In this document: positions 288-33,964 of the stretch, in pieces | Position numbering within the stretch: position 1 is the stretch's first letter | How the letters are laid out: each line of letters starts with the position of its first letter | From: Acidobacteriota bacterium | GTDB lineage: Bacteria > Acidobacteriota > Terriglobia > Bryobacterales > Bryobacteraceae | Length of the DNA: 64,000 nucleotides | Reading direction: 5' to 3' | NCBI GenBank assembly: GCA_017307505.1 | Contig: JAFKEE010000034.1 | Coordinates: forward strand, 1-64,000 | Program-made: the position numbers and the translations under genes | Notes under the pieces: model-generated | The model's input: only the letters and a program-made list of their open reading frames with translations | Told to the model about the DNA's origin: nothing | Database searches by the model: none

Positions 288-1190
288 ATGCTGGCCGTCA
301 CTATTTTAGGCAACAACTCTGCTCTACCCGCATTTGATCGTCACCCTACAGCCCAGGTCGTGACGATGGAAGATCAGATTTTCCTCGTGGATTGTGGCGA
401 AGGCACCCAGATGCAGATGGCCAAGTACAAGATCCGGCGCAGCAAGATCAATCATATTTTTATCTCCCATCTTCATGGCGATCATTATTTCGGGCTCATC
501 GGCGTATTGACCAGCATGGGACTGCTGGGCAGGTCTCAGGACATGCACATCTATGCTCCACCCGTTTTGAAGGACATCATCGGGCTCCAATTAAAGGTTG
601 CCGATATTCATCTTCCTTATCCCCTGCATTTTCATCCGCTGGAGAAAGAAGGCGTTCTTGTCCGTGAACCCAAGTTCGAGGTCAGCTGTTTTCCTGTCTA
701 TCATCGCATCGAGTGTTGGGGGTTCAGGTTCCGCGAGATACGCCCATCCCGGCGCGTGAATCCCGAGAAAGCCAGACAACATGGGGTGCCCTCTTCTTTT
801 TTTGATAGGCTAAAATGGGGCGAAAGCTATCTCACCAAGGATGGGCAGCTGATTGAGAACAGTTGGGTCACCGAGCCCGCTACCCGCGCCAAGTCTTATG
901 CTTATGCTGCGGATACCCTTTTCGATACCCGCATCGTCGACAGCGTCAGGGGGGTGGATTTGCTCTATCACGAGACTACCTATTTAAAGGACCTTTCCGA
1001 ACAGGCCAACAAGCGGTTTCATAGCACTACGGCCCAGGCAGCCACCGTCGCCCAGCAGGCAGGTGTGCATCGGCTCATCATCGGTCATTTCAGTTCCAAA
1101 TACGAAAAGCTCCAGGCCTTCGAACAGGAGGCCAGAGAGATATTCCCGCACACCGATCTCGCCCTGGAAGGCGTAACCTACCGGATTTAG
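288..1190 (+). CDS. rnz: Ribonuclease Z (tRNA 3' endonuclease)
   Basis: A 300-residue metallo-beta-lactamase-fold protein of the usual length for short RNase Z, which cuts the 3' trailer from tRNA precursors. The zinc motif HLHGDH lies near residues 62-67, a further histidine near 138, the aspartate in AADT near 207, and the late histidine in the IIGHFSS motif near 265. These are the expected ligands of the two-zinc centre. The N-terminal ILGNNSALP motif and the overall sequence look like Bacteroidota enzymes rather than acidobacterial ones (family impression, not a search). The gene is about 50% GC, clearly lower than the genes after 1.5 kb. Its TAG overlaps the stop of the convergent chimeric topB frame by three bases. 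The ATG at 288 begins directly with the conserved N-terminus. Confidence 0.9.
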   Translation: MLAVTILGNNSALPAFDRHPTAQVVTMEDQIFLVDCGEGTQMQMAKYKIRRSKINHIFISHLHGDHYFGLIGVLTSMGLLGRSQDMHIYAPPVLKDIIGLQLKVADIHLPYPLHFHPLEKEGVLVREPKFEVSCFPVYHRIECWGFRFREIRPSRRVNPEKARQHGVPSSFFDRLKWGESYLTKDGQLIENSWVTEPATRAKSYAYAADTLFDTRIVDSVRGVDLLYHETTYLKDLSEQANKRFHSTTAQAATVAQQAGVHRLIIGHFSSKYEKLQAFEQEAREIFPHTDLALEGVTYRI

Positions 1191-2911
1191 AGACCCGCCA
1201 CGTATTTTTTGATTTTCTCCTGCAGCCCCTCGCTGACAGGTACCACCGGCAGACGGAGGTAGTTACCTATGAGCTTCATTTCGCTCATGGCAGCCTTTAC
1301 TCCCGCTGGGTTATTTTCGGAAAAAAGGAGCTCGTATCCTCGTATCAGCTTGTCATTCGCAGCCTTTGCCCCTTTGAAATCCCCTTTCAGGCACGATCTC
1401 ACCATGTCCGTGAACATACGGGGGAAGCTATTGGCTGCTACGCTGATGACACCTTCCATACCGCAGGCTATCTGGGGGAGGGTCAGGGCGTCGTCCCCGC
1501 TGACGTCATCGGTGTCGTCGGCGGAGGCGCCTCGGGCTTTCTTTTCCTTTTTGCGGGTGACGATGTCGAGGACCTTCCAGCCGGGTTGCTGGATGGCCGT
1601 ACCGCTGGAGTGGAAGCGGTCGTCGACGGTACTGCGGACCAGGGTGATTACCGTGGTGACCGACCAGATATGGTCGTCATGCCAGGCCGAGAGGAGCCGG
1701 CGGCAGATCAGGTCGAAGATGCGCTCTTCCTCGCCGTTGAGGGAGGCGCGGTCGGCGGAGACTCCGGTGGGGATGATGGCGTGGTGGTCGGTGACCTTGG
1801 TGTCGTCCACGTACCGCTTGTTCAGGGGGCGCTCGCCGGTGCCGGGGGCGAGGAGGGCCTGGTAGGGTCCGGAGATGCCGGCTACGATTTTGGGCAGCGT
1901 TTTGGCCACGTCGGCCGAGAGGTGGCGGCTGTCCGTGCGGGGGTAGCTGATGAGCTTGTGGCGCTCGTAAAGGGCCTGGGCTGTGTCGAGGGTGCGCTGG
2001 GCGCTCATGCCGTAGAGGCGGTTGGCGTGGCGCTGCAGCTCGGTGAGGTCGTAGAGGCCGGGCGGCGGCATGCGCTTGGTCTGGGCCTCGATCTTCTCGA
2101 TATGGGCGGAGCCGGTTTTGACGCGGTCGACGATGGCGTTGGCCTCGATGCCGTCGGCGGGCAGGCGCGAGGAGGCGTCCAGGGTTTCGCCGCCTGGGCG
2201 GAACCAGGTGCCGGCGTAGGAGCGGTCGTCACCAGGAGAGAATTCGGCCGTGACGGTGTAGTAGTCCTCGGGGACGAAGTGGCGGATGGCGAGTTCCCGT
2301 TCGACCACCATGGCGAGGGTGGGGGTCTGGACGCGTCCCACCGAGAAGTCCTCACCGTGGCCGAGGGTATAGGCGCGGGAGAGGTTCATGCCCACCAGCC
2401 AGTCGGCGCGGCTGCGGCCCCTGGCGGCGTCGGCCAGGGGGTCGTAGGCGGACCCGGGCTTCACTTTCTCAAAGCCGTCGCGGATGGCGTCGGGGGTGAG
2501 GGAGGAGATCCAGAGGCGGCGGACCGGTTTGTCGGAGCCGGCGGCTTCGTAGATGTAGCGGAAGATGAGCTCGCCTTCGCGGCCGGCGTCCGTGGCGCAG
2601 ATGACGTCGGAGATCTTGGGGGAGGTAAGGATCTTCCGGACGACCTCGAACTGGTCTTTGGTCTCCTCGCCAATGACGAGAGGCCACTGTTCGGGCAGCA
2701 TGGGGAGGGTCTCGCGCTTCCACCATTTCCAGTCGGCGCGGATTTCGTGGGGCTGGGCGAGGGCTACGAGGTGGCCGATGGCCCAGGTGACGACGTAGCC
2801 GTTGCCGTGCAGGTAGCCCTGGCCGGTACTGGTTGCTTTAAGAACTCTCGCAATGTCGCGCGCCACGGAAGGCTTTTCGGCGATCACTGCGACGCTGAAT
2901 TGCGACGCCAT
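1187..2911 (-). CDS. Chimeric frame: DNA topoisomerase III fused to the C-terminus of DapA
   Basis: From the ATG at 2911 (an upstream ATG at 2932 is also in frame) the first ~470 residues are a type IA topoisomerase III. They show a Toprim start with IAEKPSVA, the DAGREGE metal motif, and the active-site tyrosine in ISYPRTDSRHLS near residue 320. The remaining ~100 residues are not topoisomerase. GMEGVISVAAN, a long amphipathic helix and RLPVVPVSEG form the C-terminal end of 4-hydroxy-tetrahydrodipicolinate synthase (DapA, lysine synthesis). The switch occurs around SGDDALTLP, close to 1478-1506, where DapA itself normally has SGDD. GC falls sharply at the same point. The topoisomerase lacks its C-terminal part and DapA lacks its active-site lysine half, so neither is complete. 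A natural fusion is possible, but a chimeric join at short homology is more likely. Confidence 0.8.
   Translation of the reverse strand: MASQFSVAVIAEKPSVARDIARVLKATSTGQGYLHGNGYVVTWAIGHLVALAQPHEIRADWKWWKRETLPMLPEQWPLVIGEETKDQFEVVRKILTSPKISDVICATDAGREGELIFRYIYEAAGSDKPVRRLWISSLTPDAIRDGFEKVKPGSAYDPLADAARGRSRADWLVGMNLSRAYTLGHGEDFSVGRVQTPTLAMVVERELAIRHFVPEDYYTVTAEFSPGDDRSYAGTWFRPGGETLDASSRLPADGIEANAIVDRVKTGSAHIEKIEAQTKRMPPPGLYDLTELQRHANRLYGMSAQRTLDTAQALYERHKLISYPRTDSRHLSADVAKTLPKIVAGISGPYQALLAPGTGERPLNKRYVDDTKVTDHHAIIPTGVSADRASLNGEEERIFDLICRRLLSAWHDDHIWSVTTVITLVRSTVDDRFHSSGTAIQQPGWKVLDIVTRKKEKKARGASADDTDDVSGDDALTLPQIACGMEGVISVAANSFPRMFTDMVRSCLKGDFKGAKAANDKLIRGYELLFSENNPAGVKAAMSEMKLIGNYLRLPVVPVSEGLQEKIKKYVAGL
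1478..1506. other. Composition and homology junction inside the topB/dapA frame
   Basis: On the minus strand the translation passes here from lysine/alanine-rich topoisomerase linker to DapA sequence through SGDDALTLP. Left of the point (1-1480) the DNA is near 50% GC with A/T-ending codons; right of it the DNA is about 65-70% GC with G/C-ending codons. The exact base of the join cannot be fixed by eye because the SGDD codons fit both partners. Confidence 0.6.
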
Positions 2912-3122
2912 GCCCGATTTCGAGGATAGCAATGTGGGGTGGGTGGGGGTTTGAGGCAGGGGTTTGAGGATGTGGTAGGGGCGGTCTCGCTGGGGCTTGG
3001 CGGTCGGGCGATCTGGTGGAGGACGCTGGGACGGGCGAAGTCCGCTCTGAGGGCCGCGAAAGCCTTGAAATCAGTTGTGGGCTTGTGGAAAATCTGCTGT
3101 TAGAATGTGAGGCACTAACTGG

Positions 3123-4313
3123 ATGCCTGTCCTCCCCTCTATTCCCTACGCGTCTCTCGTGGCGGACGTGCTGGCCGAGAACCAGGCGCTGATCCCGTTC
3201 CTGGGCGCCGGCGCTTCCATTGCCGGGGCTCCGCCGTCTTCCGTACCCGTTCCGTCCTACCCGCCCGATTCCGAGATCGATGAACTGGCTACCCGCTGGG
3301 GGCTTTCCGGCGCGGCGCTGGACCATCTGAAGCAGGGGATCCGGCAGGCGTTCGATCTGCAGAACTACGAGAACCACGAGCCGGAGTGGATGGAGATCGC
3401 CGGGGAGAAGCCGTATCCGCCTTCGGCCCGGGAACTGGCTAATGCCCTGGCGGCGAATGTGAGCTACCACGGGACGTGGCCCTACTCGCTGCTGCCGGTG
3501 TCGAGCTATCACGAGTTTGTGCGCGGCCGGGATCCGCATCGGAAGGATCTCGAGTCGCTGTTTGCCGGGAAGACCCAGCCGCTGCCGTCGCAGGACCTGA
3601 TCGCGCGCGCGGCCCGGCACCACCTGCGGCATACCAAACGCGACTACCTGGTGATCACCACCAACTACGATCAGCTGATCGAGCTGGCGTTCGACGCCGC
3701 CAAGGTTCCTTATATGGTGCTGACGGTGGGCCGGAAGCAGCATCACGTCACCGTGCGGGCCAGCGCCAGCCTGCAGGCGTGGCTCGGGCTTTCGGACGAG
3801 GACTTCCAGGATTTTCTGGAAGGACTGAAGGGCAAGCAGCCCGCTCTGTTTACGCTGCCGGCCGTGGCGGCTCGTAAGCCGGTGGCCGTCCTATATAAGA
3901 TGCACGGCTGTCTGTTCCCGCCGGCGGGCACGACGGACGACAGCATCATCCTGTCGGATGAGGATTACATCGCGTTTCTGAAGCGGCAGGGCGAGTCGGG
4001 CGACGGGGTGATCCCGGCGGCCGTCACGCGCCTGATGCAGAACGAGGGCCAGGCCAATACGGGCTTCCTGTTTCTCGGCTATAGCTTCTCCGACTGGAAT
4101 GTGCGCGCCATGTACCGGACGATCATCGACCAGCGGGCGCTGACCAAGGACGTCCGGGACTATGCGGTGGTGAGCTGGGTGAACGACTTTGAATCGCAGT
4201 ACCTGTCGCAGCCCACGATCAATGTGTGCGTGGCCGACCTGGTGAAGTTCTCGAGTGAGATCAAGCGGCGCGCGGCGCCGGAGGCGTGGTCGGATACCCC
4301 AGCATTATGGTAG
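3123..4313 (+). CDS. SIR2-like protein, putative NAD+-hydrolysing effector
   Basis: A 396-residue protein of the SIR2-like family found in bacterial defence and conflict operons. The N-terminal nucleotide-binding loop reads LIPFLGAGAS near residues 23-32. VITTNYDQLIE near 177-187 is the TxNxD-type strand, KMHG near 259-262 carries the expected catalytic histidine, and FLFLGYSFSDWNVR near 316-329 is the late Rossmann strand. All key positions of an NAD+-binding, potentially NAD+-cleaving SIR2 fold are therefore present. There is no zinc ribbon, which argues against a protein deacetylase. It is the first gene of a two-gene unit: its TAG lies inside the start region of the following STAND NTPase (ATGGTAG). 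Inference: the SIR2 protein is the effector and the STAND protein is the sensor/switch. Confidence 0.82.
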   Translation: MPVLPSIPYASLVADVLAENQALIPFLGAGASIAGAPPSSVPVPSYPPDSEIDELATRWGLSGAALDHLKQGIRQAFDLQNYENHEPEWMEIAGEKPYPPSARELANALAANVSYHGTWPYSLLPVSSYHEFVRGRDPHRKDLESLFAGKTQPLPSQDLIARAARHHLRHTKRDYLVITTNYDQLIELAFDAAKVPYMVLTVGRKQHHVTVRASASLQAWLGLSDEDFQDFLEGLKGKQPALFTLPAVAARKPVAVLYKMHGCLFPPAGTTDDSIILSDEDYIAFLKRQGESGDGVIPAAVTRLMQNEGQANTGFLFLGYSFSDWNVRAMYRTIIDQRALTKDVRDYAVVSWVNDFESQYLSQPTINVCVADLVKFSSEIKRRAAPEAWSDTPALW

Positions 4314-7300
4314 GTCCCAATCCTTTTCGAGGACTCTCCTCTTACACACGAGACGACCGGGAGGTCCTGTTCGGACGCGACGATGACCTCACCGTGATCC
4401 TGGCCCGCATCTTCTCGCGCCGGACGACGCTGCTGTTCTCAGGATCCGGGGTAGGGAAGACGTCGTTCCTGAATGCGAAGGTGGCTCCGGAGCTGGAGCG
4501 GCGCTACTGCATCTGCTCGCACTCGGTATGGAGCGTGGAAGAGCCGCTGGCGGCATTGCAGCAGGCATTGCGCAAGGCGTGGGCCACTCAGGGGTTTGCG
4601 TGCCCGGAAGGAGCGTCCCTATGTGGCATGCTGCCCACGACGCACCAGGAGCTGAGCGGGACGCTGTTTATCCTCGATCAGTTCGAAGAGGTCTTCCAGA
4701 ACCATCGCGACACGCCGGAGTTCGATGCGTTCATCGAGAATCTCTGCGAGCTGGTGAATGCCGAGAACCTGGAAGCGCGGGTGATCTTTGCCATGCGCGA
4801 AGAGTTCCTGGGCGAGCTGAGCGCCTTCGACAATAAGGTGCCCGACCTGTTCGGCAACTACTACCGCCTGAAGGCGCCGAACCGCCGTCAGGCCAAGGAG
4901 ATTATCGAGGCGACGGCGCGGTCGGTCGGAGTAGGGAAGTCGGCGCTGCTGCCGGAGTTGTTAAACGATCTGCTGCGGGCCGCCACTCCGGGCATGCGGG
5001 GTGCGGTCTATCGTTCGCGCGAGTTCGTCTCGCCGCCTTACCTGCAGATCGCCTGCCGGCGGTTGTGGGATCTGAATCCGCCGTCCGAAGAGAGCGGCTT
5101 CCCGCGTGAGTACACGCCCGGCGGGGCGTCGAATGCGCTGCGGAGCTACTGCGACGAGAATCTCGACCCGCTGCCGAAGGAGGCCAAGGAGGTGATCTCC
5201 GGCGCCTTCGGGTTCCTGATCACGCGGCAGGGCGCCAAGATGGCGTACGAGCTGAACAGCCTGGCCGAGCACCTGAAGCTGGACAAGGAGAAGCTGGACT
5301 CGGCGCTGTCGTCGCTGAGCAAGGTGAGGATTCTCCGGCGAACGCCGGCGCCCGGCGGAGCGATCTGGTTTGAGCTGTACCACGACATGTACGCGCCGTT
5401 TCTGACGGCCTGGGCGGAGCGATATCGCTTGGAGTGTGAGGATGCGGCCAAGCGATCGCGGAAGAACAGCCGGTATCTATTGGAGCTGGCCGCGATGCTG
5501 GCGATCCTGGGTGCCGGTTCCGCGCTGTATCTGTTCCGGTCGAACAGCCAGTTGGAAGAGGTCAGTACGAAGCTGACGCGCACGGCGGACGCCAAGCCGA
5601 TTCTGGATACGGCGACGCTCGTCTCGCTGGTGGATTCCGAACGCGCCGCGCTGCTGGCGCTGGCGGCGGAGCAGCTTTCGAATGGGGCGGCCGATCGCTC
5701 CGATGTCTCGCGGATTCTGGGCGACGTCCTGGCGACGCCGCGGCCCACGATCGCCGGTAAGCTGGGTCCGATTGTCAGCGCGGTGGTGAGCGGCGATCGT
5801 GTCGCGGCGCTGACAGACAGAGGAGATGTGATTACCTGGGGTCCGGATGGGAAGACCACGAAGTTGGCCCGGGTAGCGGATGCCACGGATATCGGTGCCG
5901 ACGCGCAGGGATTCATTGTGGTGGGCCGCAGCGGTGTGCGGACCCTGGTCACGCGCGAAGGCAGAACGCTGCCTTACGCCGGGCCCCTCACGGCTCCATT
6001 TGTCAGCGACACGGCCAATGGACTGACGGCGAAGGGCGATGCCTCCGGCTCCGTGCAACTCGGGGTTGCCTCCGCCGGCTACCGCGGCGCGATCCCCAAG
6101 TCGACCCGTGTCGGCAGCTCGGCGGTCACGCAAGTGCGCTGGAGTGCGAACGGGGCGCAGCTTCTGGCCGGCCTGGATGACGGCACGGCCAGCATTCTCG
6201 ATGGCCCTACGCTGGACCTGGTGACCCACCTGCCGGGTTCGGCCGGAGCCGCGCTGGCGGTGGGCTGGAACCAGTCCGGCGCGCCGGTCACGGTGAGCCG
6301 TACGGGCGAGGTGCGCGTGTGGGATCTCAACACGCCCCTGAAGCGGATCCGCGTGTCGTCACAGGTGCTGTATGGCATCGCCTACTCGCCCAACGGGCAG
6401 CGTCTGGTTGCGGGCTCGGGCGATGGTTCGGTCAAAGTCGTGGACATGGACAAGGGGGCACTGGTCGGCGACTGGAAGAATGTCCCGGCCTCCAAACAGG
6501 TGTGGGATGTGGCTTACAGTCCGAATGGCAAGAACATCGCGAGTGTCAGCCTCGACGGCCTGCTGAACCTCTGGACGTTGTCGGGCAAGAACTACGACGG
6601 GCACAGTTTTTCGAAGAGTGTCTGGTCTGTGGATTTTGCTCCGGATGGCAAGTCCGTGGCGGTGGCGCTATCGGATGGAAACGTCTACGTGGTGGATCTG
6701 CCCATCCAGAACAACACTCCGCGGCTGGTGGCGACTCATAAGGACCGGGCGGTTGCGGTCCGGTTCTCGCCCGACGGCCGTTATGTGGCCAGCGCCGGGA
6801 TGGACCGGCATCTGTTGCTGACGCCGCTCCGGGATGGGGTGGCGGCCCGGGATATCGGTCCGAAGCCGGGCGCGCTGCTGGATCTCGCCTTCGGCGGGAC
6901 GTCGGGCTTGTGGGTGGCGGCTGCCGATGCTTCGGGCGTGGCCGATGTGGAGCGGAAGGCGGGGACGCTGACGATGCGCGGGCATACCGGTCCGGTGTAT
7001 GGGGTGGCGTGCCGGCCGAAGGTCGATGAAATGGCGACCAGCGGGCAGGATGGCACGGTGCGGGTGTGGAACATGAACAGCGAGACGGAGATCATGCGCT
7101 ACTCCGCGCATACGGGGGGAGCGAACCGGGTGGCCTACCGGCCGGATGGCAAGGTGATCGCCTCCAGCGGCGCCGATGGGTTCGTCCGGACGTACGCGGC
7201 TACGTACGATGACCTGCTCGATATGGCGCGCCACTATGTGACCCGCACGTTGACGGCGGACGAGTGCAAGCAGTTCCTGAAGGATGCGCCGTGCCCCGAT

Positions 7301-7324
7301 GATTTGCGGCAGGGGGCCAGGTAA
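4307..7324 (+). CDS. nSTAND1 NTPase with transmembrane segment and WD40 propeller
   Basis: About 1005 residues. The start chosen is the ATG at 4307, which overlaps the SIR2 stop (ATGGTAG) and begins directly with the family's NPFRGL...FGRD signature; an in-frame ATG at 4286 is less likely. Walker A is GSGVGKTS (residues 45-52), Walker B FILDQFEEVF (121-130), and a sensor-type strand RVIFAMREEF lies near 158-167. A winged-helix-like stretch follows up to about 380. One hydrophobic segment (AAMLAILGAGSALYLF, about 390-407) then precedes a long C-terminal WD40 propeller (about 470-980) with repeated GxDGxVxxW/D motifs. It ends with the LTADECKQFL...CP tail typical of such proteins. STAND proteins are signal-activated switches; here the propeller is the likely sensor and the coupled SIR2 protein the likely output. 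Confidence 0.85.
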   Translation: MVGPNPFRGLSSYTRDDREVLFGRDDDLTVILARIFSRRTTLLFSGSGVGKTSFLNAKVAPELERRYCICSHSVWSVEEPLAALQQALRKAWATQGFACPEGASLCGMLPTTHQELSGTLFILDQFEEVFQNHRDTPEFDAFIENLCELVNAENLEARVIFAMREEFLGELSAFDNKVPDLFGNYYRLKAPNRRQAKEIIEATARSVGVGKSALLPELLNDLLRAATPGMRGAVYRSREFVSPPYLQIACRRLWDLNPPSEESGFPREYTPGGASNALRSYCDENLDPLPKEAKEVISGAFGFLITRQGAKMAYELNSLAEHLKLDKEKLDSALSSLSKVRILRRTPAPGGAIWFELYHDMYAPFLTAWAERYRLECEDAAKRSRKNSRYLLELAAMLAILGAGSALYLFRSNSQLEEVSTKLTRTADAKPILDTATLVSLVDSERAALLALAAEQLSNGAADRSDVSRILGDVLATPRPTIAGKLGPIVSAVVSGDRVAALTDRGDVITWGPDGKTTKLARVADATDIGADAQGFIVVGRSGVRTLVTREGRTLPYAGPLTAPFVSDTANGLTAKGDASGSVQLGVASAGYRGAIPKSTRVGSSAVTQVRWSANGAQLLAGLDDGTASILDGPTLDLVTHLPGSAGAALAVGWNQSGAPVTVSRTGEVRVWDLNTPLKRIRVSSQVLYGIAYSPNGQRLVAGSGDGSVKVVDMDKGALVGDWKNVPASKQVWDVAYSPNGKNIASVSLDGLLNLWTLSGKNYDGHSFSKSVWSVDFAPDGKSVAVALSDGNVYVVDLPIQNNTPRLVATHKDRAVAVRFSPDGRYVASAGMDRHLLLTPLRDGVAARDIGPKPGALLDLAFGGTSGLWVAAADASGVADVERKAGTLTMRGHTGPVYGVACRPKVDEMATSGQDGTVRVWNMNSETEIMRYSAHTGGANRVAYRPDGKVIASSGADGFVRTYAATYDDLLDMARHYVTRTLTADECKQFLKDAPCPDDLRQGAR

Positions 7325-30799: not shown

Positions 30800-31090
30800 G
30801 AGTCCTCCCATTCCCGAACATGGAGCAGCGCTATGCTGCCCGCTTCCTCCGGGACTCGCGAGGAGTGCGGCTATGAAATTCATCGCTGGTTCGAGACGAT
30901 CGAAGCTTCATTCAACCGGCAAGGCCACAGCGATTGGTGCACCTCCTGAATAACATGGGATAGATGGCGATCTTGGTAAAAAGGAGTAAATCCGGCGAGT
31001 TCTGCGGTCGCTGAAGCCGTTTAAGCTGCATCGCCCATGCCTTATTCGGCTCTCCTGAGCGAAACTGGATAGGTGCCAATCGGAGGAGCT

Positions 31091-33964
31091 TTGGATCCCG
31101 CGGAGAGACCAGATAGCCCGAAAGGTCGCACCTATTGCTTCGGCGACTACCGCTTTCACCCTGACCGTCAGCTATTGCTTCGCTGCAACGAGCCGATCTC
31201 ACTGGGAAGCCGGGCACTCGACTTGCTGCACGCCCTGCTCCGGAATGCGGGCACGGTTGTGAGCAAGCAGGAGCTCATGCATTTCGCCTGGCCCAATACC
31301 TTTGTTCACGAGGCCAATCTCAAGGTAAACATCGCCGGATTACGAAAAGCCCTTCGATCCAGCCCACCCGAGACCCGCTACATCGCGACAGTACCAGGCC
31401 GTGGATATCGATTCGTCGCGCCGGTTCAGATACTGGATCTGCCCTCCGAAAAGCCCACGCCCGCTGCCGTGAGGGCGAATACAGGGAAGCTGCCCACGGC
31501 ATTGCCCCTCATCGGCCGGGAACAAGCCCTTGCGGAGATCGATGGCGCGCTGCTGGAAACCCGCCTTCTGACCATCGTCGGCGCCGCGGGTGTCGGGAAG
31601 AGCAGCGTGGCGATCGCGCAAGCAGCCCGAGCGGCCTGCCGGTTCGAGGACGGCGTTTGCTACGTGGATCTTTCGGCGATCGACGATCCGCAATTCGTCG
31701 TGCCTGCAATCGCGTTTGCACTCGGACGCGACAGTAACTTCGTCAACACCTTAGCCGGCCTTGCGGCGCTGTTGCGCGGCCGCGGCATCATGCTGGTCCT
31801 CGACAACTGTGAACATCTGTTGAGTGGAGTTGCCAGCGTCGCGGATTACTTGTGTCATCTGTTGCCCGGCCTGTCGCTCGTTGTAACCAGCCGGGAGCCG
31901 CTCCGATGCAGATTGGAATTGGTCTACCGGTTGCCTCCACTCCCCTGCCCACCAGAAGGGAATGAGGCGGAGGCGGCTGCCGTCCTGGGGTTCTCAGCCG
32001 TCCAGCTTCTCGTTCACCGGGCGCAGGCTCAAGGCTACCAGCTGGATGAGTCGGATCTCCCGGCGCTCGCTGCGATCAGTCGCCGCCTGGATGGGATAGC
32101 GCTGGCAATCGAATTGGCTGCCTCGCAGTTGACGACACAGAGTCCGGCTGCCTTGAGCGCCATCCTGGAAAAGAGCTTCGCGACGCTGGTATCAGAGACG
32201 GATGCTGCGCCTGCTCGGCACAAGACGCTCATGGCAACGCTTGGCTGGAGCTATCAACTGCTTTCGGGACAGGAAGCGAGGCTGCTTCGGCATCTTTCCG
32301 TGTTCAGTGGGGGATTTGGGCTGGAAGACGCCGTCGGCGCTGCGAACCATTTGCAGAAGAACGCGGATGATATTGCCACTTGGCTTGAGAGTCTAGCCTC
32401 AAAGTCGCTGTTGACGCCATCCTATCGCGAAGGGCGGCGATGGTACCGGCTACTGGATACAACACGGAGCTTCATGCACGAGCGGCTTCGGGAGACCGGC
32501 GAACTGCGGACAGCCATGATCGGCTATTCGTTATACCTTCTTTCCCGATTTGAGCAGGCGGAAGCGGAATGGGCCTGGCGCACCAGAGAGGACTGGGCGG
32601 AGCTGTACGGTCCAGCGGGCAATGATCTGCGCCGGGCGATCGATTGGTCATTTGGCGAGGGAGAAAATGCAGAGTTGGGCATCCGGCTCACTGTCGCCGG
32701 TATTACCCTCTGGCGCGAGCAATCCTCCTTCCTGGAGAATCGGTCGCGCGTGCAGACTGCCCTGGATGCGGCAAGGGCGCTCCCGGCCCTCGATAGCAGC
32801 CTCAGGATGAAGCTCATCGCCGTCCAGGGGATCAACTTGTGCCAGGCCCGGGAGATCGCCTCGGCTGTGGAACTCCTGAAAGAAGGTATCCGGCTCGCCA
32901 ACGAACTGGGCAATATCGAGTACCGGGCACGCATGAGCGGTCTCATGGCCGGGGCGCAGTTTTTTATGGGGCGGCACCAGGAAGCGCTCGCATCGCTTTC
33001 CCAGCTTCGCGTCATCATCGATGTGGCTGACCCGGGTTCGGTGGAGCCGGACATCCGATGGCATGAATTGATGATCGGTTTTTGCCGCGGCGGCATCAGC
33101 CATGCCTACGACGGATTGCAGAAGCTGGCGCGCGAATACTCAAAGGTCTCCCATCGTTCGCAGGTTTCCAGGTTCGTGATCGATCGTTTTGTCGCGATTC
33201 GGACATTTCAGGCGGTGGCGGCATGGGCGATCGGGCGGCCTCGGCAGGCCATCGAGACAGCGGCGGAGGCTGTCGAGGCAGCGACAAGTCTTGAGCATGC
33301 GGTCTCAAGCGTCTTTGTCCTTGGGTTGGGGGCAATTCCCGTGGCGCTGTTCAGCGGACTTTTCGATGTCGCACAGAAATGGGTGGATCTGTTGAGCGAG
33401 AACATCGTCCTGATCCAGGATGAGGTGTGGGCTCCGAATGCCCGCCTTTATCAGGCGGCGATCGACCATGCCCGAGGCCTCCCGGACGCTTTGGAAAGAA
33501 TGCGTGGCGCGATCGACGAGATGATCGAGAGTGACATGTTGGTCCATGCGCCGGTACGGCTGGCGCTGCTCGCTGATGCCGCCTTGCTCGGAGATCGGCT
33601 CGATCTTGCGGAAGCTGCCGTAGCACAAGCGTTCCATTATTCCCGCCAGAATGGCGAACATTGGAGCGACGCGGAGTTGTTCCGGCTACAGGCGATGATC
33701 GGTTGGCGCCGCGCCGATTTGCCCCAGGCCAGGCGATTGCTGAAGAAGGCGATTCATGTGGCGGAGCAGGACAATGCCCTGAGCTTCCAATTGCGAGCGG
33801 CCATCTGTCTCGCTGAATTGGAGCGGCAATCTGGCTCTGACGAAGGCGCGCTGGAAAGCCTGGCTTTGCTTTATCGGCGATTTGACAATGACGGTGCCTC
33901 CGCTGACCTGGTCAAGGCACAAGCACTTCTGAGCGATCCTCCACCAGAATCTCCGCAAAGATGA
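31091..33964 (+). CDS. Winged-helix/NB-ARC/TPR transcriptional regulator
   Basis: I prefer the TTG at 31091, which follows GGAGGA; a GTG at 31073 is in frame but has no ribosome site. About 957 residues. An OmpR/PhoB-type winged helix covers about 15-95 (FGDYRFHPDRQLLL, LGSRALDLLHALLRNAG, RYIATVPGRGYRFV). A P-loop NTPase (GAAGVGKSS near 162-170; LVLDNCEHLL Walker B near 232-241; VVTSREPL; GIALAIELAA) follows, then about 400 residues of helical, TPR-like repeats. This is the architecture of large ATP-dependent signalling activators. It is divergent from the five-gene redox operon, its probable target. The effector is unknown. Confidence 0.85.
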   Translation: MDPAERPDSPKGRTYCFGDYRFHPDRQLLLRCNEPISLGSRALDLLHALLRNAGTVVSKQELMHFAWPNTFVHEANLKVNIAGLRKALRSSPPETRYIATVPGRGYRFVAPVQILDLPSEKPTPAAVRANTGKLPTALPLIGREQALAEIDGALLETRLLTIVGAAGVGKSSVAIAQAARAACRFEDGVCYVDLSAIDDPQFVVPAIAFALGRDSNFVNTLAGLAALLRGRGIMLVLDNCEHLLSGVASVADYLCHLLPGLSLVVTSREPLRCRLELVYRLPPLPCPPEGNEAEAAAVLGFSAVQLLVHRAQAQGYQLDESDLPALAAISRRLDGIALAIELAASQLTTQSPAALSAILEKSFATLVSETDAAPARHKTLMATLGWSYQLLSGQEARLLRHLSVFSGGFGLEDAVGAANHLQKNADDIATWLESLASKSLLTPSYREGRRWYRLLDTTRSFMHERLRETGELRTAMIGYSLYLLSRFEQAEAEWAWRTREDWAELYGPAGNDLRRAIDWSFGEGENAELGIRLTVAGITLWREQSSFLENRSRVQTALDAARALPALDSSLRMKLIAVQGINLCQAREIASAVELLKEGIRLANELGNIEYRARMSGLMAGAQFFMGRHQEALASLSQLRVIIDVADPGSVEPDIRWHELMIGFCRGGISHAYDGLQKLAREYSKVSHRSQVSRFVIDRFVAIRTFQAVAAWAIGRPRQAIETAAEAVEAATSLEHAVSSVFVLGLGAIPVALFSGLFDVAQKWVDLLSENIVLIQDEVWAPNARLYQAAIDHARGLPDALERMRGAIDEMIESDMLVHAPVRLALLADAALLGDRLDLAEAAVAQAFHYSRQNGEHWSDAELFRLQAMIGWRRADLPQARRLLKKAIHVAEQDNALSFQLRAAICLAELERQSGSDEGALESLALLYRRFDNDGASADLVKAQALLSDPPPESPQR

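What the first reader, a model, noticed from the sequence alone, without database searches (positions are those of the whole stretch)
3123..7324. Two-gene SIR2 / nSTAND1-TM-WD40 module, candidate anti-phage or conflict system
A SIR2-like protein with intact NAD-site motifs (GAGAS, TTNYD, KMHG, GYSFSDW) is followed without a gap by a STAND NTPase that has Walker A and B, one membrane helix and a WD40 propeller. The STAND start overlaps the SIR2 stop (ATGGTAG), so the two are made together. Established: SIR2 domains in bacterial defence destroy NAD+, and STAND NTPases act as triggered switches; single-chain SIR2-STAND proteins (Avs5-like) are known. Inference: here the same logic is split into two proteins, with the propeller as sensor.
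Basis: partly seen in the sequence, partly recalled or inferred. Interest (0 to 1): 0.8.

Follow-up and report, generated by a model that had tools for sequence, protein, structure and literature searches.

The report
SIR2 enzyme paired with membrane STAND receptor
Two adjacent bacterial genes look like a cell-surface alarm: a receptor that crosses the membrane and probably senses something outside, paired with an enzyme inside that probably destroys the vital molecule NAD+; many bacterial groups carry such pairs, with different sensor ends.

Summary
A SIR2 gene (3123-4313) with intact catalytic motifs overlaps by 7 nt an nSTAND1 NTPase-TM-WD40 gene (4307-7324). The pair is no chance neighbourhood: all 80 loci kept from a seeded scan for SIR2 relatives have nSTAND1 beside it on the same strand (77 downstream), over nine phyla; unseeded searches give 12 of 13 genuine loci. 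Both proteins diverge in step (Mantel r 0.81). The SIR2 profile matches solved NADases (ThsA, KomC, DSR2). I read this as a transmembrane STAND receptor with an extracytoplasmic sensor switching a separate cytosolic SIR2 NADase. It is not a split Avs5: its NTPase matched no Avs-named model. 'Anti-phage' is unproven: sampled flanks show no enrichment of PADLOC families over control regions. In the held library I found no report of the pair. New variant of a known kind; no structure prediction finished.

The parts
3123..4313 (+). SIR2_2 protein, 396 aa, predicted cytosolic NADase
   Evidence: ORF; Pfam SIR2_2 4.5e-21; profile of 79 sequences matches ThsA, KomC, DSR2
3204..3218 (+). GAGAS motif of SIR2 (aa 28-32)
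   Evidence: sequence; Gly28 in 78 of 79 rows, one gap
3657..3671 (+). TTNYD motif with catalytic Asn181
   Evidence: Asn in 78 of 79 rows, Tyr and Asp in 79 of 79
3897..3908 (+). KMHG motif with His261
   Evidence: His and Gly in 79 of 79 rows
4077..4097 (+). GYSFSDW motif
   Evidence: Tyr320, Asp324, Trp325 in 79 of 79 rows
4307..4313 (+). ATGGTAG: start of the STAND gene overlaps the stop of the SIR2 gene
   Evidence: sequence; orthologues align from the same Met
4307..7324 (+). nSTAND1 NTPase - membrane helix - WD40 protein, 1005 aa
4307..5461 (+). nSTAND1 NTPase domain (about aa 1-385)
   Evidence: PF20703 4e-36, aa 6-361; the only one of 5 matches in the genome that is over the cut-off
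4442..4465 (+). Walker A GSGVGKTS
   Evidence: Gly48, Gly50, Lys51 and Ser53 invariant in A3 (27 rows) and A7 (22 rows)
5477..5533 (+). predicted single membrane helix (aa 391-409), preceded by KRSRKNSR
   Evidence: hydropathy; a helix in this place in 60 of 65 scorable relatives
5717..7201 (+). WD40 propeller region (about aa 471-965), predicted extracytoplasmic sensor
   Evidence: Pfam WD40; boundaries approximate

Best explanation
The two genes encode one receptor-effector unit. The STAND protein is anchored in the cytoplasmic membrane by one helix, NTPase inside and propeller outside. Binding of an unknown envelope or external ligand to the propeller lets the NTPase exchange nucleotide and assemble; the assembly recruits and switches on the separate SIR2 protein, which hydrolyses NAD+ and stops or kills the cell. 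Shown here: an intact gene pair under selection, constant pairing in the loci examined, divergence in step, kept SIR2 catalytic residues, a conserved helix with a positive-inside pattern, exchanged tails. Inferred: propeller outside, ligand, assembly, activation, NAD+ loss, and the trigger (phage, rival, predator or envelope damage).
For: Pairing: nSTAND1 (by a profile built here) on the same strand next to SIR2 in 80 of 80 kept loci; NTPase domain starting within 150 nt of the SIR2 stop in 74 of 80; 12 of 13 genuine loci from single-sequence searches. Mantel r 0.81 between SIR2 and NTPase distances over 73 loci, best of 2000 permutations 0.26. SIR2: Asn 78 of 79, His 79 of 79; profile hits to ThsA 3.8e-25, KomC 2.5e-24, a chain named DSR2 6.9e-19; that ThsA and DSR2 hydrolyse NAD+ is stated in passages of PMC12931631, KomC is named NADase in its entry. 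Helix: 60 of 65, against 28% of shuffles; K/R more frequent before than after in 56, equal in 4, reversed in 0. In the wider family 8 of 10 fetched nSTAND1 loci have a helix after the NTPase, with kinase or DNA-binding domains in the same chain before it, which implies a cytosolic NTPase side. Tails: at least 12 changes among six hand-assigned classes over 54 rows. Both proteins under purifying selection, strongest on SIR2.
Against: No experiment and no structure: the AlphaFold job for the STAND protein never finished and that for SIR2 was not accepted. The window's own helix is the weakest of the three orthologues (1.87). Cysteine content is alike on both sides (0.52% and 0.58%), so it gives no support for the topology. 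Of the 5 relatives without a helix at the threshold, L040, L059 and L090 have nothing near it and L045 and L053 fall just short; L042, L052 and L053 end in several helices. No enrichment of defence families in sampled flanks; no relative found by one single-sequence search each of viral contigs and phage records. Of ten non-WD40 tails scanned, four matched a Pfam family over its cut-off or nearly so and several matched none, so 'sensor' is inference.
Confidence: 0.5

Rival explanations
1. A cytosolic anti-phage system of Avs type: SIR2 and STAND form a complex, the propeller binds a phage protein inside the cell, and the hydrophobic helix is only a tether while the propeller is not translocated.
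For: Same chemistry and NTPase logic as Avs5 (passages of PMC12931631, which also report membrane-associated foci of Avs5). Patchy occurrence: 6 of 61 relatives, own genome and one broken fragment included; 6 of 396 in the phylum, own genome included, after three chance hits are dropped.
Against: A single helix with a strict positive-inside pattern would put the tail outside; the NTPase matches no Avs-named family; no enrichment of defence families in sampled flanks; no match in phage records.
Confidence: 0.25
2. An envelope-stress or developmental signalling pair, not immune: the SIR2 protein lowers or remodels NAD+ pools, or makes an ADP-ribose signal, in response to an envelope cue, as related nSTAND1 proteins do with kinases or DNA-binding domains.
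For: nSTAND1 in the same phylum is joined to Ser/Thr kinase or Trans_reg_C domains or follows a TIR gene, in part ordinary membrane signalling outputs; no enrichment of defence families in sampled flanks; locus kept near the same phosphodiesterase gene in three congeners.
Against: Patchy distribution; spread over nine phyla that does not follow phylum groups (25 changes against a least of 8); tail exchange; the death role known for related SIR2 proteins.
Confidence: 0.2
3. The pair is a chance or passive neighbourhood with no joint function.
For: Only one broken SIR2 fragment without nSTAND1 on its 12.6-kb contig (L029); the seeds of the scan were themselves nSTAND1-linked.
Against: 80 of 80 kept loci, 12 of 13 in unseeded searches, r 0.81.
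Confidence: 0.02

Closest known systems
Avs5 (AVAST type 5), SIR2-STAND-TPR (PMC12931631, passages read)
   Same: SIR2 NADase effector governed by a STAND NTPase with a C-terminal repeat sensor
   Different: One chain there, two genes here; no Avs-named PADLOC family matches the NTPase; conserved membrane helix here; His-Gly kept in 79 of 79 here, Asn-Gly in about half of Avs5
Single-chain TIR- or SIR2-STAND-repeat proteins of P4 satellites (PMC9122126, passages read)
   Same: NAD+-cleaving domain, STAND NTPase, C-terminal repeats
   Different: Single chains; no helix is mentioned for them in the passages read
nSTAND1 conflict systems with lectin-like FGS domains (PMC8195603, section 7 and passages read)
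   Same: Same NTPase clade; exchangeable effectors and sensors; one relative here (L092) has an FGE domain in its tail
   Different: That section lists TIR, DRHyd, calcineurin, peptidase, kinase and FHA partners of STAND-FGS proteins; SIR2 appears there only for an EAD10 system; no SIR2-nSTAND1 gene pair
NACHT/nSTAND1-CLec targets of diversity-generating retroelements (PMC10907252, passages read)
   Same: STAND proteins with C-terminal sensors; one target predicted periplasmic
   Different: CLec sensors diversified by retroelements; no SIR2 in the text (0 occurrences)
Thoeris ThsA, KomC and DSR2 SIR2 proteins
   Same: SIR2 profile match of 6.9e-19 or better, same catalytic motifs
   Different: Activated by nucleotide signals (ThsA) or phage proteins (DSR2) (recalled), not by an adjacent STAND protein
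EACC1 two-gene membrane conflict system (PMC7159879, passages read)
   Same: Two genes, membrane-associated, variable part
   Different: EACC1 and caspase components; SIR2 has no occurrence in the main text
DUF4062 NADase TEP1 (PMC13174449, passages read)
   Same: NADase next to a NACHT NTPase with WD40 repeats
   Different: TIR-like enzyme in a single chain, found in the RNA vault

Membership tests
SIR2 NADase superfamily (SIR2_2) | Sequence profile over curated cut-off | tested here: met
   75.9 bits against cut-off 24.5
SIR2 NADase superfamily (SIR2_2) | Catalytic Asn of TTNxD and His of HG | tested here: met
   Asn 78 of 79, His 79 of 79
SIR2 NADase superfamily (SIR2_2) | NAD+ hydrolysis | not testable with these tools
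   needs an enzyme assay
nSTAND1 clade (PF20703) | Profile over curated cut-off, Walker A and B | tested here: met
   125.9 bits against 27.1; motif residues invariant in 22 rows
Avs5 / AVAST type 5 | SIR2 and STAND in one chain | tested here: not met
   two ORFs
Avs5 / AVAST type 5 | NTPase of the Avs clade | tested here: not met
   no Avs-named family at E up to 1 for the window protein or 0.01 for 22 NTPases; that the library holds Avs models is recalled, and the test is by sequence only
Avs5 / AVAST type 5 | Phage-triggered NAD+ loss | not testable with these tools
   needs an infection assay
Transmembrane STAND receptor with outside sensor (proposed) | Helix between NTPase and tail, positive-inside | tested here: met
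   60 of 65; 56 more basic before, 4 equal, 0 reversed; 15 of 80 loci left out as cut off or broken
Transmembrane STAND receptor with outside sensor (proposed) | Tail outside the cytoplasm | tested here: inconclusive
   inferred from the helix; cysteine content alike on both sides; LGFP and PKD matches in two tails are below cut-off
Anti-phage defence system | Sits among defence genes | tested here: not met
   in this sample: 105 flank ORFs match 6 PADLOC families at 1e-10, each by one ORF; 100 control ORFs match 39 families (25 shown, each by one ORF); controls include a likely CRISPR locus
Anti-phage defence system | Protects against phage | not testable with these tools
   needs a plaque assay

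The most novel reading that the evidence does not exclude
A widespread class of bacterial surface-to-cytosol death receptors: a membrane-spanning STAND protein whose exchangeable extracytoplasmic domain (propeller, TPR, HEAT or other) reads the cell surface and, across the membrane, switches a separate cytosolic SIR2 NADase. This would be a bacterial counterpart of Toll-type receptors rather than of cytosolic NLRs.
Probability: 0.4. Interest if true: 0.8.

Novelty: new variant of a known kind. Interest (0 to 1): 0.58.

Why it matters
Bacterial STAND immunity studied so far detects phage proteins inside the cell (Avs; recalled). A STAND switch that spans the membrane would let a bacterium act on a cue outside, before or without entry of an invader, through NAD+ loss. 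The family is broad (nine phyla in a 73-row tree), the window's proteins match the 2023 PADLOC library only weakly or through the propeller, and tails differ between close relatives, so ligand and topology questions can be tested directly.

Tried and rejected
Chance neighbourhood: rejected. Split Avs5: rejected as membership. Loss of catalytic residues: rejected. Defence island: looked for in a random 105 of 303 flank ORFs (from 56 loci; only loci of 8 kb or more were used) against a random 100 of 148 ORFs from 20 spaced regions of six Acidobacteriota genomes. ORFs were picked by length alone, so wrong frames occur in both sets. No enrichment. Control families include Csm3 and a type III Cas1, so one control region probably holds a CRISPR locus. 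Viral contigs: two pattern matches, no relative (single sequence, finds close relatives only); phage records: no match; plasmid records: one chromosome-sized Nonomuraea record. Three weak phylum hits (L013-L015) were dropped: no SIR2 by profile. Cysteine content as a topology test: uninformative. Structure prediction: the STAND job never returned and the SIR2 job was never accepted, so no fold search was made.

nSTAND1 in the 80 loci was found with a profile built here from 11 sequences, not with Pfam. Tail classes for the tree were assigned by me from Pfam hits and by eye; only WD40 (31 of 64 tails, window included) rests on a uniform scan. 66 tails qualified; 63 of them plus the window went into (three cut by contig ends dropped). 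A first tree count that still held truncated rows gave 24 (seven classes) and 15 (WD40 or not) changes; one search leaves truncated rows out. A first, stricter helix count gave 52 of 66, with 48 of 52 more basic before, 3 equal and 1 reversed.

Full report
WHAT IS THERE. The window lies on contig C15 of a 9.4-Mb genome. Of five nSTAND1 matches in the genome only this one is over the curated cut-off.

CONSERVATION. Two same-genus genomes carry orthologous pairs. Against the window, amino-acid identity is 92 and 90% for SIR2, 86 and 81% for the NTPase and 76 and 67% for the propeller region. dN/dS is 0.04-0.08, 0.06-0.14 and 0.14-0.19 in these, 0.22-0.27 in the helix and linker. Synonymous sites are close to saturation (dS 0.8-1.6), so the ratios are rough. 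A downstream phosphodiesterase gene is shared in all three, with an extra 370-381-aa gene before it in the other two, of which the window's genome has no homologue. The window's upstream neighbours (tRNase Z-like and topoisomerase genes) are not beside the pair in the other two.

PAIRING. Single-sequence searches of 61 relatives and 396 genomes of the phylum and of plasmid records gave, after dropping three chance hits that no SIR2 profile supports, 13 SIR2 loci, the window included; 12 have nSTAND1 next to them. Two of these are longer proteins (L027, L028) whose N-terminal part I take for CHAT by likeness to L151, where Pfam names it; L027 rests on a tblastn match of 1e-8. The thirteenth, L029, is a broken SIR2 fragment without nSTAND1 on its 12.6-kb contig. 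A scan of 84,980 species genomes, guided by an alignment of ten nSTAND1-linked SIR2 proteins, gave 153 candidates, 97 relatives and 80 kept loci. All 80 have an nSTAND1 frame on the same strand near the SIR2 gene, 77 downstream and 3 upstream; in 74 of 80 the NTPase domain starts within 150 nt of the SIR2 stop. Distances of SIR2 and NTPase correlate at r 0.81 over 73 loci; the best of 2000 permutations reached 0.26.

THE SIR2 SIDE. In 79 aligned sequences the catalytic Asn is kept in 78, His-Gly in all. A profile of these matches solved SIR2 proteins of defence systems: a 'USG protein' (7uxt) 3.8e-26, ThsA (6lhx) 3.8e-25, KomC 2.5e-24, DSR2-named chains 6.9e-19. With one sequence alone the matches are weak (best 0.046), and PADLOC families match only in part (best PDC-S25, 1.2e-9; ThsA 2e-8).

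THE STAND SIDE. The NTPase profile matches nothing convincing among solved structures (best 0.0056, a GTPase P-loop). The window's STAND protein matches one PADLOC family, HEAT-ARM_XIII, through its propeller (3.5e-14). Of 22 NTPases, 14 match mad8 weakly (best 1.5e-7) and none an Avs-named family. After the NTPase comes a helix. Fifteen of the 80 loci were left out as cut off or broken; of 65 proteins, 60 have a 19-residue stretch of mean hydropathy 1.6 or more in the right place, against 28% of shuffles. In 56 the 15 residues before it hold more K/R than the 15 after, in 4 equally many, in none fewer (means 5.5 and 2.3). Ten loci with strong nSTAND1 matches were fetched from other genomes of the phylum: five look like Ser/Thr kinase fusions (Pfam run on one, L144; four by eye), one has a Trans_reg_C domain, one a TIR gene upstream, one a CHAT-SIR2 gene, two a TIR gene with a SIR2-like part (over the Pfam cut-off in L153, only a weak match to my profile in L152); eight of the ten have a helix after the NTPase, the last two do not. 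Kinase and DNA-binding domains in the same chain imply that the NTPase side is cytosolic.

THE TAIL. WD40 is found in 31 of 64 tails, the window included. By eye and by a Pfam scan of ten non-WD40 tails there are also TPR, HEAT (L077), pYEATS (L087), S8 peptidase plus FGE (L092), weak LGFP, PKD or DUF2914 matches below cut-off, coiled coil, or almost nothing. On a tree of SIR2 plus NTPase, six hand-assigned classes need at least 12 changes over 54 rows (least possible 5; shuffled mean 22.8, lowest 20), and WD40 against not at least 14 over 64 rows (shuffled mean 21.3, lowest 15). L051 (TPR) and L091 (WD40) are sisters with support 99. Tails are thus exchanged, though not freely. Nine phyla are in the tree and phylum labels need 25 changes where 8 would do; bins, paralogues and transfer can all cause this.

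HOW IT MOST LIKELY WORKS. A membrane-anchored STAND switch with its sensor outside, NTPase inside, and a separate SIR2 NADase as output. Shown: pair, motifs, helix, charge pattern, tail exchange. Inferred: side of the tail, ligand, assembly, activation and effect. That a STAND switch governs a SIR2 NADase rests on published families (passages of PMC12931631; PMC9122126), not on tests here.

AGAINST DEFENCE. 105 sampled flank ORFs matched 6 PADLOC families at 1e-10, each by one ORF; 100 control ORFs matched 39 families, some of them from a likely CRISPR locus. No relatives were found in viral contigs or phage records by one search each. Patchiness and spread fit a conflict role but do not show it.

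LITERATURE. The words nSTAND1 and SIR2 occur together in one paper of the held library, PMC8195603; I read its section 7 and passages: it names the clade but not this pair. In the listings, and the passages that I opened from six of the listed papers, I saw no report of a SIR2 gene paired with nSTAND1. PMC10907252 (passages) predicts one periplasmic STAND sensor, so an outside STAND sensor as such is not a new idea. The library lacks most subscription papers.

Noticed in passing
window 1187-2932, - strand: Topoisomerase III-like ORF whose residues 477-578 match the C-terminus of DHDPS/DapA (3.8e-18), with the topoisomerase domain cut short (profile 3-295 of 411); two congeners have a 97% identical topoisomerase part in frames of 1628 and 1734 aa elsewhere. 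Looks like a rearrangement, or an assembly join, just upstream of the SIR2 gene.
   Followed up: partly
L019:5541-6653 and L020:5373-6518 (- strand): A 370-381-aa gene, DUF6895 match below cut-off, lies between STAND and phosphodiesterase genes in two congeners (60% identical); no match in the window's genome.
   Followed up: partly
window 31073-33964: 963-aa protein with an N-terminal Trans_reg_C domain and a sub-threshold nSTAND1-like P-loop (22.3 bits).
   Followed up: no
L152:2978-5371 and L153:4220-5926: TIR-domain gene with a SIR2-like part (weak in L152) next to an nSTAND1 gene without membrane helix: possible double-NADase variant.
   Followed up: no
L146:4075-9860: TIR gene followed by an nSTAND1-helix-TPR gene: same layout with TIR in place of SIR2.
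   Followed up: no
L027:2239-4416, L028:7375-9546, L151:7046-9073: Apparent CHAT-SIR2 fusions upstream of nSTAND1 (CHAT confirmed by Pfam only in L151).
   Followed up: partly
L065, L067, L075, L082, L087 tails: Shared short tail after the helix: pYEATS by Pfam in L087 (3.5e-6), no Pfam match in L067, alike by eye in all five.
   Followed up: no
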